IMG/VR virus record: IMGVR_UViG_3300044691_000116
Coordinates: 1 to 64,000 of that record
Strand: one strand, 5' to 3'
Source: a virus
Length of the DNA: 64,000 nt
Shown: one piece after another, positions 1 to 4,971 of the stretch
Layout: every line of letters starts with the position of its first letter
How positions within the stretch are numbered: position 1 is the first letter of the stretch
The notes under the pieces: model-generated
Databases searched by the model: none
The model's input: the letters and a program-made list of their open reading frames with translations, nothing else
What the model was told of the DNA's origin: nothing
Program-made: the position numbers and the translations under genes

Positions 1-1
1 C

Positions 2-199
2 ACGCGCCAGGAAGCGGCGCTCATCTTCGCGAACTGCCGCCCGCACGTCGATCCCCTGTGGCACTGGACGAGCGAAGAGCACGAATCGAACGACTCGTGT
101 GCCTGGGATTGCCACTTCAGCAACGGCTGCCAGGTCAACGGCAGCAAGTCCTCCGAGGGCAGCGCCCGAGCCGTCCGCTTGATTCACATCACCGACTGA
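2..199 (+). CDS. DGR target protein 1, C-terminal fragment (DUF1566/Lcl-like, carries VR1)
   Basis: The reading frame is open from the left edge, so only the last 65 residues are present. The fragment contains the WHWTSEE segment and the AW-x-C-x-F ... K-S-S-E-G-S-A-R-A-V-R ending typical of DUF1566/Lcl C-terminal domains, which adopt a C-type-lectin-like fold. Variable repeat VR1 covers almost the whole C-terminal end. The DNA from 1 to 88 is identical to 504-591 in the next gene, so the two genes are recent tandem duplicates that differ only inside VR and after it. The final residues (after the conserved VR end) differ from the second copy. Inferred role: a surface-exposed variable protein diversified by the adjacent retroelement; its ligand is unknown. 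Confidence 0.85.
   Translation, partial: TRQEAALIFANCRPHVDPLWHWTSEEHESNDSCAWDCHFSNGCQVNGSKSSEGSARAVRLIHITD
89..178 (+). repeat. VR1: DGR variable repeat VR1
   Basis: These 90 bases align without gaps to TR 1264-1353. They differ at nine positions (99, 107, 113, 120, 129, 135, 140, 141, 144), and every one corresponds to an adenine in TR. The last 34 bases are identical to TR despite containing adenines, as expected for the 3' initiation-of-mutagenic-homing (IMH) segment. The substitutions change codons for Tyr, Asn and Asp in TR to Cys, Asp, His, Ser, Cys, Val, Gly and Ser. Confidence 0.95.
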
Positions 200-218
200 A
201 TCCTTCAATCCTTCAGTC
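194..218 (+). other. Hairpin just downstream of VR1
   Basis: A 7-bp perfect inverted repeat (GACTGAA/TTCAGTC) with an 11-nt loop begins 16 bases past VR1 and overlaps the target stop codon. DGRs such as that of Bordetella phage BPP-1 have a DNA hairpin at this place that promotes homing. The match here is positional; function is inferred. Confidence 0.45.
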
Positions 219-237
219 CACTCGAGGAGATGACCCA

Positions 238-696
238 ATGACCGAAATCACGCTGCAGGCCGTTCGCGCCAAGCAGACCGAGTTGGCGACCATGATCGCC
301 GCCCTGATGAACCAGACCGCGACGACGGTCTCCGTCGACGCGATCGACATCGAGCTGCGCGACGGCGAGCACTACGCCGGCGCCGTCCTGAACGATGACG
401 GCACGATCAAGCACCACCTGGTGCTGATGGCCGAGAAGCCGGACGAGATGCTGCCGTGGGCGCGCGCCATGGTCTGGGCCGATAGCGTTGGTGGCTTGCT
501 GCCCACGCGCCAGGAAGCGGCGCTCATCTTCGCGAACTGCCGCCCGCACGTCGATCCCCTGTGGCACTGGACGAGCGAAGAGCACGAATCGAACGACTCG
601 TGTGCCTGGTATTGCTACTTCATCAACGGCTACCAGGACCTCAACTTCAAGTCCTCCGAGGGCAGCGCCCGAGCCGTCCGCAGATTGACTTCGTAA
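238..696 (+). CDS. DGR target protein 2 (DUF1566/Lcl-like, carries VR2)
   Basis: This is a 152-residue protein. The start at 238 is chosen for the GAGGAGA ribosome site 8 bases upstream. Residues 1-85 form a conserved phage domain that includes the ELRDGEHYAGAVL segment. Residues 88-152 are the DUF1566/Lcl-like C-terminal domain, with WHWTSEE followed by the variable face AWYCYFINGYQDLNFK and the constant SSEGSARAVR end. I recognise small proteins of this type from many phage early regions, where the function is not established. Here the C-terminal domain is under DGR control. It is probably co-transcribed with avd and the RT. No signal peptide or membrane segment is visible, so it may act in the cytoplasm or be a minor virion part. 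Confidence 0.88.
   Translation: MTEITLQAVRAKQTELATMIAALMNQTATTVSVDAIDIELRDGEHYAGAVLNDDGTIKHHLVLMAEKPDEMLPWARAMVWADSVGGLLPTRQEAALIFANCRPHVDPLWHWTSEEHESNDSCAWYCYFINGYQDLNFKSSEGSARAVRRLTS
504..681 (+). repeat. Second copy of the 178-bp target-gene duplication (first copy 1-178)
   Basis: Bases 1-178 and 504-681 are identical except at positions within VR that correspond to TR adenines. This shows that the two target genes arose by tandem duplication and that mutagenic homing is the main force separating them. Confidence 0.9.
592..686 (+). repeat. VR2: DGR variable repeat VR2
   Basis: These 95 bases align without gaps to TR 1264-1358. There are eight differences (602, 610, 616, 623, 640, 641, 646, 647), all at TR adenines. 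Seven of the eight replacements are T or C; the exception is the G at 602. The 3' part is identical to TR through CGCAGATT, five bases longer than in VR1. VR1 and VR2 share only the A-to-G change at TR 1274. Confidence 0.95.
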
Positions 697-699
697 GTC
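687..699 (+). other. Short hairpin abutting VR2
   Basis: GACTT and AAGTC form a 5-bp inverted repeat with a 3-nt loop directly after VR2, across the stop codon. Its position matches the post-VR hairpin of other DGRs, but the stem is short. Confidence 0.3.
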
Positions 700-728
700 C
701 TTCGATCCTTTGAATTGAGTCCCGCCAC

Positions 729-1091
729 ATGGCCATCCACGACCAACTGCCTATCTACCGCACCGGCGTGCGCCTGCTCGCCCTTGCGGTCAGAGTGCAG
801 GAGCAAATGCCGCGCAGCATCAAACGCATCTTGGGCGAGAAGATCACCCACCATTGCGTTGAGATGCTCGACCTGATGGCGTTCGCCAACGCGACCCAGA
901 AAGGCGTGCGCGCCAGGCACATCCAGGCGCTGCTGTCGCGGCAGCGCGCGGTGACCGTGCTTCTGCGGGTCAGCCACGATAGCCGATACCTCTCACCCAA
1001 GCTGTGGGCCGAGTCTGTCGAGTTGCTTGGCAGCATCGGCAGCCAAGCCGGCGGGTGGCTCAAGTCCGCAAATAGGGCGCCTGCAGCATGA
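729..1091 (+). CDS. avd: DGR accessory variability determinant
   Basis: This 120-residue, mostly helical protein has the Avd family pattern: an N-terminal YRTGVRLLALAVR helix, the MPRSIKRILGEKI helix, and the C-terminal ELLGSIGSQAGGWLKS end. Avd forms a pentamer of four-helix bundles that binds the DGR reverse transcriptase and template RNA and is needed for mutagenic cDNA synthesis. It lies between VR2 and TR, as in the BPP-1 order. Its TGA stop overlaps the ATG at 1088 of the RT frame, which suggests translational coupling. Length is typical of the family. Confidence 0.93.
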   Translation: MAIHDQLPIYRTGVRLLALAVRVQEQMPRSIKRILGEKITHHCVEMLDLMAFANATQKGVRARHIQALLSRQRAVTVLLRVSHDSRYLSPKLWAESVELLGSIGSQAGGWLKSANRAPAA

Positions 1092-2449
1092 CGGTCAAGG
1101 CCCTCATGCCCGTGCGCAATGTGAATCTGGTTGCGCCCCTCGCCTACCCGGCGACGGACATGCACACCACAGATACCGTCGCCTCTGTGCGGGCCGCGTC
1201 TGGTGCAGCTATCGACCTGATCGGCGCAAGCCTTCGGGTCGACGGCCTTGAAAGCGCGACAACAACGACTCGTATGCCTGGAATTGCAACTTCAACAACG
1301 GCTACCAGGACAACAACAACAAGTCCTCCGAGGGCAGCGCCCGAGCCGTCCGCAGATTCCAACCTGTTTCCCCTGCTCGTCGAGGCGTACCTCGATTGCC
1401 GGCGCACGAAGCGCAACAGCGCCAGCGCGCTCGCATTCGAGGCCCACCTCGAAAGCAACCTGTGTGACCTGCACGACGATCTGGTCTCTGGCGCCTACCG
1501 GCCTGGGCGATCGACGTGCTTCGTCACGCTGCGCCCCAAGCCACGCGAGATCTGGGCGGCCGGCTTCCGCGATCGGGTGGTCCATCACCTGCTCCACAAC
1601 CGGATCTCGCCCACCTTCTACCGGTCGTTCACGGCTGACACCTGTGCCTGCATCCCGGGCCGCGGCACGCTGTACGCCGCTCGTCGCCTCGAGGCACAGG
1701 TGCGCAGCCTCACCGAGAACTGGTCGCGGCCGGCGTACTACCTGAAGTGCGACCTGTCGAATTTCTTCGTTGCGATCGACAAGTACGTGTTGCGCGAGCA
1801 GCTGCTGCCGCGCATCGAGGGCGCCTGGTGGCAGGACCTCTCCGAGACGGTGCTGTTCCACGACCCGCGCGGTGACGTCGAAGTGCGCTCGCCGGCGGCC
1901 GTCATGCGCCTGGTGCCACCGCACAAGAGCCTGTTCAATGCGCCGGCCGACACCGGCCTGCCGATCGGCAACTTGTCGTCGCAGTTCTTCGCAAACGTGC
2001 ACCTCGACGCGCTCGACCAGTTCGCCAAGCACCAGCTACGCGCGCCGCGGTACGTGCGCTACGTCGACGACTTCGTTTTCACGCACGAGTCGACCGAGGT
2101 TCTTAGCGGCTGGCTGCGCCAGGTCGACGCGTTCCTGCCATTGCGGCTCGGCGCTCACCTGAACCCACGCAAGACCGTGCTGCAGCCCATCGCCCGCGGC
2201 ATCGACTTCGTGGGCCACGTCATCCGTCCGTGGCACCGCACGCTGCGGGCGAACGCCCTGCCGAACGCCTTGCGCCGGCTCAGCGCAACGCCTGATGACA
2301 CGCTCTTCGAGACGCTGAACAGCTACTTCGGCATGTTCCGCCAGGCGCCGGCTAGCCATCACGTCCGCGCCCAGCTGGCCAACGCAGCCCGGAACCGCGG
2401 CTTCTGCGTCAACGGCTCGCTCACAAAAGTTTATCGAAAGACAGCATGA
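1088..2449 (+). CDS. DGR reverse transcriptase (start uncertain)
   Basis: The RT domain begins near base 1360 (SNLFPLLVEAYLDCRR) and is about 360 residues long, similar to Bordetella Brt. Motif A is CDLSNFFVAID, the class-specific motif is GLPIGNLSSQFFAN (DGR RTs have an SQ here), and the catalytic box is YVDDF at bases 2060-2074, residues 325-329 if counted from 1088. The enzyme copies TR RNA with errors at adenines, together with Avd. The frame is open back to an ATG at 1088 that overlaps the avd stop, so a 453-residue form would translate TR itself into a Thr/Pro-rich stretch. The only other ATG before the conserved domain is 1274, inside TR. Which start is used is not resolved. Confidence 0.93.
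   Translation: MTVKALMPVRNVNLVAPLAYPATDMHTTDTVASVRAASGAAIDLIGASLRVDGLESATTTTRMPGIATSTTATRTTTTSPPRAAPEPSADSNLFPLLVEAYLDCRRTKRNSASALAFEAHLESNLCDLHDDLVSGAYRPGRSTCFVTLRPKPREIWAAGFRDRVVHHLLHNRISPTFYRSFTADTCACIPGRGTLYAARRLEAQVRSLTENWSRPAYYLKCDLSNFFVAIDKYVLREQLLPRIEGAWWQDLSETVLFHDPRGDVEVRSPAAVMRLVPPHKSLFNAPADTGLPIGNLSSQFFANVHLDALDQFAKHQLRAPRYVRYVDDFVFTHESTEVLSGWLRQVDAFLPLRLGAHLNPRKTVLQPIARGIDFVGHVIRPWHRTLRANALPNALRRLSATPDDTLFETLNSYFGMFRQAPASHHVRAQLANAARNRGFCVNGSLTKVYRKTA
1264..1358 (+). repeat. TR: DGR template repeat TR (transcribed donor)
   Basis: The 95-bp donor lies between avd and the RT domain. Read in the VR frame it is rich in AAC/AAT/TAT/TAC/GAC codons, eight of them hit in at least one VR, the codon style that gives broad diversity when adenines are replaced. 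12 of its 23 adenines between 1264 and 1322 are substituted in at least one VR. No VR difference occurs at a non-adenine. The template RNA probably starts in the 1092-1263 spacer and runs into the RT gene; its ends cannot be seen from sequence. Confidence 0.95.
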
Positions 2450-4104: not shown

Positions 4105-4971
4105 ATGACCGAAACCACTCAAGCCGCACGCCAGGTGCAAATCGTCAGCCGCTGGAATTCGTCCCGTGTGCTGTTCTCGTTCGATGTGCCGGCAACGGTC
4201 GCGAGCGGAATGGAGACGCGAGCAGCGCTGGAGTCCGCTGTGGCTGGCGGCGCCAACCTGCGCGGCGCCGACCTGAGCGACGCCGACCTGAGCGACGCCA
4301 ACCTGCGCGGCGCCGACCTGAGCGACGCCGACCTGAGCGACGCCAACCTGCGCGGCGCCGACCTGCGCGGCGCCAACCTGCGCGACGCCGACCTGAGCGG
4401 CGCCGACCTGCGCGGCGCCAACCTGAGCGACGCCAACCTGCGCGGCGCCGACCTGCGCGACGCCGACCTGCGCGACGCCAACCTGCGCGGCGCCGACCTG
4501 CGCGGCGCCAACCTGAGCGACGCCAACCTGCGCGGCGCCGACCTGCGCGACGCCGACCTGCGCGACGCCGACCTGCGCGGCGCCGACCTGCGCGGCGCCG
4601 ACCTGCGCGACGCCGACCTGCGCGGCGCCGACCTGCGCGACGCCAACCTGAGCCCAATCAAGGCCGACTACTTCGACGTGCTGCTGCGCGCGCCGCGCGA
4701 GATTCCTGCTCTACGCGCCGCCTTGGTTGCCGGCAAGGTGGACGGCTCCTGCTACGAGGGCGCGTGCGCGTGCCTTGTGGGCACGATCGCCAATGCTCGC
4801 GGTGCGCAGTACGACGCGCTCGGCTCCGGTCTGGCGCCGAATTCGAGCCGACCCATCGAGAGCTTTTTCATGTCAATCACGAGCGGCGACACGCCGGAAA
4901 CGAATCAGGTGTCAAAGCTGGCTGTCGAATGGCTCGACGAGTTCGCCGGCTTGTTGTCTGCCGCCGCCTGA
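4105..4971 (+). CDS. Pentapeptide-repeat protein
   Basis: This 288-residue protein has residues about 50-182 made of about 27 units of the A-(D/N)-L-x-x pattern. These predict a right-handed quadrilateral beta-helix. Residues 1-49 and 183-288 are non-repetitive; the C-terminal part ([19 protein letters not shown]) appears on other phage pentapeptide proteins that I recall. Pentapeptide proteins such as Qnr/MfpA mimic DNA and bind gyrase, but that role is not shown here. No membrane segment is seen. Confidence 0.88.
4252..4650 (+). repeat. 15-bp tandem repeat array encoding pentapeptides
   Basis: A nearly perfect array of 15-base units alternates GCCGACCTG or GCCAACCTG with CGCGGC, CGCGAC, AGCGAC or AGCGGC. 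About 27 units lie in phase with the reading frame. The DNA-level identity among units shows recent expansion, and the array is likely to be length-variable. Confidence 0.9.

What the first reader, a model, noticed from the sequence alone, without database searches (positions are those of the whole stretch)
1..696. Tandem duplicated DGR targets that differ only where mutagenesis acts
Bases 1-178 and 504-681 are identical outside VR substitution sites. Both VRs are served by one TR. This gives two independently diversified copies of the same domain, which lets one copy keep a working binding face while the other samples.
Basis: seen in the sequence. Interest (0 to 1): 0.75.

Follow-up and report, generated by a model that had tools for sequence, protein, structure and literature searches.

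The report
Phage mutation-target gene array with hybrid copy
A phage carries at least three side-by-side copies of a small binding-protein gene that one mutation machine (a diversity-generating retroelement) keeps rewriting, and the middle copy is a fresh hybrid whose join lies inside the rewritten segment, which suggests that this segment is where such arrays grow by recombination.

Summary
Window 1-178 and 504-681 differ at 11 sites, all at adenines of the single template repeat (TR) at about 1266-1358. It is only part of the array. The window is bases 1-64000 of a 73,233-bp phage record, whose right end holds a third target gene (A, record 72755-73162) followed by the start of another. L048, a relative with the same gene order, shows that the two ends belong together, so the array reads A-B-C-avd-TR/RT. 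The best explanation is one unequal recombination between the VRs of A and C, followed by renewed mutagenic retrohoming. Two or more small C-type-lectin targets upstream of avd are normal in this phage clade (Magia, QDWS and about 50 relatives), and their bodies are mostly under purifying selection. Multi-target DGRs formed by duplication were described in 2012. The 'one copy backs up the other' idea is untested. In passing I found 8-nt direct repeats immediately 3' of nearly every VR in this clade, where BPP-1 has its required hairpin. The assembly gap leaves the exact copy number open.

The parts
2..199 (+). Target gene B, 3' part only (65 aa); 5' portion identical to gene C, 3' tail identical to gene A
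   Evidence: ORF; body 106/106 = C, tail 92/92 = A
91..178 (+). VR of gene B; mutated adenine sites at 107-144
   Evidence: Alignment to TR
193..224 (+). 8-nt direct-repeat element 3' of VR-B (TCCTTCAA TCCTTCAG), over the stop codon and start of the spacer
   Evidence: Scores 21/24 to (YCMTTYAR)x3; same element 3' of A and C
238..696 (+). Target gene C, 152 aa, C-type-lectin fold (Lcl_C/DUF1566-like)
   Evidence: Weak Pfam Lcl_C hit E 5e-5, below the curated cut-off; AF2 pLDDT 95; PDB 8q4e E 2e-5, 8oks Z 14.1
594..686 (+). VR of gene C
   Evidence: Alignment to TR
690..713 (+). 8-nt direct-repeat element 3' of VR-C (TCCTTCGA TCCTTTGA)
   Evidence: Score 19/24
729..1091 (+). avd, accessory variability determinant
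   Evidence: Pfam bAvd 42.2 bits over cut-off 40; PHROG 3206 Avd of DGR E 3e-22
1075..1266 (+). RT-15 structured RNA directly 5' of TR
   Evidence: Rfam RF03018, 156.5 bits, E 8.6e-39
1266..1358 (+). Template repeat (TR), the only one in the record; lies inside the RT open frame
1088..2449 (+). DGR reverse transcriptase (start codon uncertain)
   Evidence: Pfam RVT_1 42.4 bits, PHROG 1423 E 5e-103

Best explanation
This is a multi-target DGR of a temperate phage. Its target array has just grown by unequal homologous recombination inside the variable repeats. The ancestral order was A-C-avd-TR/RT. The VRs of A and C stay alike because both are rewritten from one TR, so the VR of C on one genome copy paired with the VR of A on another. 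The crossover produced A-B-C, where B has C's body and A's tail and is followed by the same spacer and a second C. Each copy kept a complete VR and its own 3' element, so each remains a target, and RT/Avd have since rewritten adenine sites so that B and C differ only there. Shown by sequence: the three genes, the hybrid structure of B, one TR, and differences only at TR adenines. Inferred: the crossover as a single event, RT-driven rewriting after it, and binding as the function of the targets.
For: At sites where A and C differ, B reads C at the first 33 sites, is mixed inside the VR, then reads A at every remaining site. Body B/C 106/106, tail B/A 92/92, A against C only 20/92 in the tail. 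The spacer and start codon region after A and after B are identical, as a crossover predicts and a plain copy of C does not. Outgroups L048 and L044 have the A-type tail on A and the C-type tail on C, and L009 is consistent with this, so B's tail is A-type. L048 has the order exonuclease-region gene - A - C - avd with no B, which gives the ancestral state and joins the record's two ends. The tree places A with L009_0/L044_0 and C with L009_1/L044_1. Six B-private VR states show activity after the duplication. Avd, RT, RT-15 RNA and TR are present.
Against: B's 5' two-thirds is not assembled, so the A-B-C order rests on the matching ends, the 31 bp of gene start after A, and synteny. Reads were not available. 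The left end extends 106 bp, not 127, before the first B/C difference, which one extra copy or allele could cause. None of 76 within-locus target pairs in relatives shows a second fresh hybrid, so generality is not shown. A two-step route (duplication, then conversion of the tail) gives the same sequence.
Confidence: 0.78

Rival explanations
1. Plain tandem duplication of C, followed by gene conversion of the B tail and spacer from A.
For: Also yields a C-body/A-tail gene; the A and C VRs share sequence that could seed conversion.
Against: Needs two events, and conversion must cover the tail, the whole spacer and at least the first 31 bases of the next gene (92+ bp identical); one crossover explains all of it.
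Confidence: 0.12
2. Assembly artefact: the contig falsely joined C-body reads to A-tail reads through the conserved VR core.
For: The record ends inside the repeat, and A, B and C share a 31-bp identical core (TR positions 70-100).
Against: Collapse normally removes copies rather than adding them. The nearest C-specific and A-specific sites flanking the VR are about 90 bp apart, shorter than the 127-bp terminal overlap that suggests k=127, so reads should span the join. B's VR also carries 6 private states found in neither parent.
Confidence: 0.08
3. Two phage strains in one sample (one A-C, one B-C) merged into a single record.
For: Metagenomic record; the body of B is missing from the assembly.
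Against: B itself would still be the hybrid product of VR recombination; this only changes whether A is present in the same genome.
Confidence: 0.1
4. One reading: the duplication is kept because one copy stays as a working backup while the other samples.
For: B and C share the same body and have different VRs. The idea is in the DGR literature (PMC3521204).
Against: Both VRs show mutated adenines; nothing marks one copy as protected. In the clade two diverged targets are both kept, mostly with dN/dS 0.05-0.32, which suggests separate roles.
Confidence: 0.2

Closest known systems
DGR of Burkholderia phage Magia (MT701587; PMC7883833)
   Same: Same RT (58% identity over nearly the full query), Avd, TR inside the RT frame, small lectin-fold targets next to avd, located between RecT/exonuclease genes and the integrase
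   Different: Targets all diverged from each other; no hybrid or near-identical copy; a third target near the immunity repressor
Multi-VR DGRs in the DiGReF survey (PMC3521204) and later surveys (PMC6642488)
   Same: One TR serving 2-4 paralogous targets thought to arise by gene duplication
   Different: No recombination breakpoint inside a VR is reported in the passages read; this case has one
Bordetella phage BPP-1 DGR (Mtd/Avd/Brt)
   Same: VR-avd-TR-RT order, C-type-lectin target, adenine-specific changes
   Different: One tail-fibre target; an 8-bp GC hairpin 3' of VR. Here there are small stand-alone targets, no hairpin, and 8-nt direct repeats
Two-target gut phages nd4/nd12 (tentaclins, PMC10743442)
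   Same: Phage DGR with two targets for one TR
   Different: There the two targets are different proteins; here they are paralogues in tandem

Membership tests
Diversity-generating retroelement (DGR) | Reverse transcriptase of the DGR type | tested here: met
   RVT_1 and PHROG 1423 hits; YVDD motif in the frame; aligned full length with annotated DGR phages
Diversity-generating retroelement (DGR) | TR/VR pair differing at TR adenines | tested here: met
   11/11 B-C differences at adenines, p 5e-10; from TR position 29 to 100 every TR-VR difference in A, B and C is at an adenine
Diversity-generating retroelement (DGR) | Avd accessory protein | tested here: met
   PF22296 above cut-off, PHROG 3206; NCBIfam Avd hit below its cut-off
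Diversity-generating retroelement (DGR) | C-type-lectin target with VR at the C terminus | tested here: met
   AF2 model pLDDT 95; Lcl C-terminal domain 8q4e and Bd2740 8oks Z 13-14
Diversity-generating retroelement (DGR) | Active mutagenic retrohoming | not testable with these tools
   Only indirect: six B-private states in an otherwise identical copy
BPP-1-type target site | GC-rich inverted repeat (7-10 bp stem) just 3' of VR | tested here: not met
   Stem of 7 or more in 3 of 107 flanks against 1.3 in shuffles; longest own stems 4 and 5; BPP-1 control 8
Multi-target DGR with paralogous targets | Two or more VR genes served by one TR | tested here: met
   A, B, C and one TR; two or more VRs in nearly all relatives with enough upstream sequence

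The most novel reading that the evidence does not exclude
The 8-nt direct repeats (consensus YCMTTYAR, TT nearly invariant) directly 3' of nearly every VR in this clade are a DGR target-recognition element that replaces the BPP-1 hairpin. VR plus this element would form a mobile 'target cassette': recombination within VRs duplicates complete cassettes, which is how these phages build and turn over arrays of diversified genes.
Probability: 0.4. Interest if true: 0.7.

Novelty: new variant of a known kind. Interest (0 to 1): 0.5.

Why it matters
Multi-target DGRs have been put down to gene duplication without a captured intermediate. Here a fresh intermediate has its breakpoint inside the VR. 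This suggests that the sequence a DGR keeps uniform among its targets also serves as the recombination handle for gaining and losing targets. It gives a natural clock too: no changes outside the VR adenines, many at them. The 8-nt repeat element offers a testable answer to how a DGR without the BPP-1 hairpin finds its targets.

Tried and rejected
Hairpin/cruciform 3' of the VR as in BPP-1: rejected for this clade. Other fresh hybrids in relatives: none in 76 pairs; longest shared stretch beyond the VR 35 bp. Nearest copies of the same array in IMG/VR by exact DNA patterns: none found, though very near records may be hidden from me. dN/dS for B against C: undefined, because there are no substitutions outside the VR. 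A against C is saturated. A 'late-gene tail fibre' reading of the targets was rejected: structural genes lie at about 22-42 kb on the other strand, and the DGR lies by the exonuclease and integrase genes. Literature search found no report of VR-internal unequal crossover or of direct repeats 3' of VR, but it covers only open-access papers, and Wu et al. 2018 was not held. The k=127 and metagenome-assembler argument is from general knowledge, not tested.

Full report
Observation. Bases 1-178 and 504-681 differ at 11 positions, 107 to 144 of the first copy. Aligned to the template repeat (TR, window 1266-1358), all 11 are TR adenines; the chance of this is 5e-10. No other base differs. The tails differ completely after base 178.

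What lies left of the window. The window is bases 1-64000 of a 73,233-bp virus record. Its last bases carry another target gene, A (record 72755-73162, L004:12756-13163, GTG start, 135 aa). After A come a spacer and the first 31 bases of a gene starting MTEITLQAVRA, identical to the spacer and start of gene C in the window. The identity runs over window 144-270, exactly 127 bases, and then the record stops. The record begins 106 bases before the first B/C difference. I read this as a circular or permuted genome whose contig broke in a tandem repeat. L048, a separate phage contig, confirms the join: the homologue of the record's right-end gene R3 lies just before A, then C, then avd and a later gene of the window. 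The array is therefore A-B-C-avd-TR/RT with at least three targets; the body of B is in the gap and extra copies cannot be excluded.

The hybrid gene. Taking only sites where A and C differ, B matches C at 33 sites in a row, is mixed inside the VR, and matches A at every site after it. In counts: body B/C 106 of 106 and B/A 73 of 106; tail B/A 92 of 92 and B/C 20 of 92. In L048 and L044 the A-position gene has the CTTGATTC/CCTGATTC-type tail and the C-position gene the CAG-type tail, and L009 is consistent. B is thus a C-body/A-tail hybrid with its joint inside the VR. One unequal crossover between the VR of C and the VR of A predicts exactly this gene, flanked by A with an identical spacer on the left and by C on the right. 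After the event the VRs were rewritten: six B sites carry a base seen in none of A, C and TR. All three copies share G at TR position 21 and differ from TR at non-adenine sites further 5', so the rewritten part in these copies starts between TR positions 21 and 29.

Machinery. RT, Avd and TR are present. Rfam finds RT-15 RNA at 1075-1266, directly before TR. The target protein C folds as a C-type lectin with high confidence (pLDDT 95); the nearest solved structures are the Legionella Lcl C-terminal domain and a Bdellovibrio domain. The changed codons are residues 125-137, in the last strands of the fold.

Clade. The RT finds 43 viral contigs, 8 Burkholderiaceae/Burkholderiales genome loci and named phages Magia, QDWS and Cruim01. 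Almost all loci with enough upstream sequence have two or more VR-bearing genes before avd, usually about 120 and 153 aa. The upstream and avd-proximal genes mostly form separate groups in a tree; in the window phage, L009 and L044 the two are sisters (support 94/90, few columns), so the upstream gene was probably replaced by a copy of the other in that lineage. Body dN/dS is 0.05-0.32 for both kinds, apart from one pair with almost no synonymous change (1.5). No relative shows another near-identical pair. In these phages the DGR lies near recombination genes and the integrase, not in the tail module; in BPP-1, VHML, VP58.5, ACA1 and Lagaffe it lies by tail or baseplate genes.

The 3' element. 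The 45 bases after the VR have an 8-nt period: lag-8 self-match 0.404 against 0.260 in shuffles (z 23), with none after TR (0.218). Three copies of YCMTTYAR (18 or more of 24) occur there in 110 of 113 targets, against 33 positions in 591 kb elsewhere and 40 on the other strand. The pattern was drawn from these data, so I tested loci not used for it: Haboob 21 and 17, SC_8_H2H8 20 and 17, L048 19 and 18, phPA-G 19 and 17, LPPA56 16 and 18; BPP-1 only 15. The BPP-1 hairpin, required there for retrohoming (PMC3240598), is absent in this clade (3 of 107 flanks with a 7-bp stem, 1.3 expected). Phages Lagaffe and BalMu-1 show 8-nt repeats of other sequence. A role in target recognition is my inference from position and exclusivity.

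Interpretation. The duplication, the single TR and independent diversification are right. The backup-copy benefit is untested; long-term retention of two constrained targets points at least as much to separate roles. Gene duplication as the source of multi-VR DGRs was stated in 2012 (PMC3521204). What is new here is the captured intermediate with its breakpoint in the VR, and the 8-nt element.

Limits. No reads were available, the body of B is not assembled, and the functional steps are inferred.

Noticed in passing
window 193-224 and 690-713; L004 13157-13188; 3' flank of VRs in L005-L063: 8-nt direct repeats (YCMTTYAR) directly 3' of VR in 110 of 113 targets and nearly nowhere else; BPP-1 hairpin absent in this clade.
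   Followed up: yes
L072 (Lagaffe), L069 (BalMu-1): Distant DGR phages also show 8-nt periodic repeats 3' of VR, of different sequence and without a long hairpin, so an 8-nt class of target flank may be wider.
   Followed up: partly
window 1088-2449 with TR at 1266-1358: TR lies inside the RT open frame, which is open through TR in 52 of 52 loci including the window; only 10 have an ATG within 150 nt after TR. A TR overlapping the RT ORF is a known arrangement (group 3 in PMC3521204).
   Followed up: partly
L048 6488-7513: A relative whose avd is truncated and whose TR and most of the RT are replaced by an HNH-like gene, with an RT C-terminal remnant left; both targets remain open.
   Followed up: partly
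L061 11164-11628: Magia gene 46 carries a VR too, although the genome announcement names only genes 47 and 57 as targets.
   Followed up: partly
window 4105-4971: Pentapeptide-repeat-like protein with about 25 tandem 15-nt units (ADLRGANL...) in the same region.
   Followed up: no
L031: A relative with four VRs, one about 3.6 kb from the others, sharing up to 35 bp beyond the VR between copies.
   Followed up: no
A, B, C at TR position 21 (window 99 and 602): The same A-to-G change (Tyr to Cys codon) in all three VRs, at or just outside the 5' edge of the rewritten part.
   Followed up: partly
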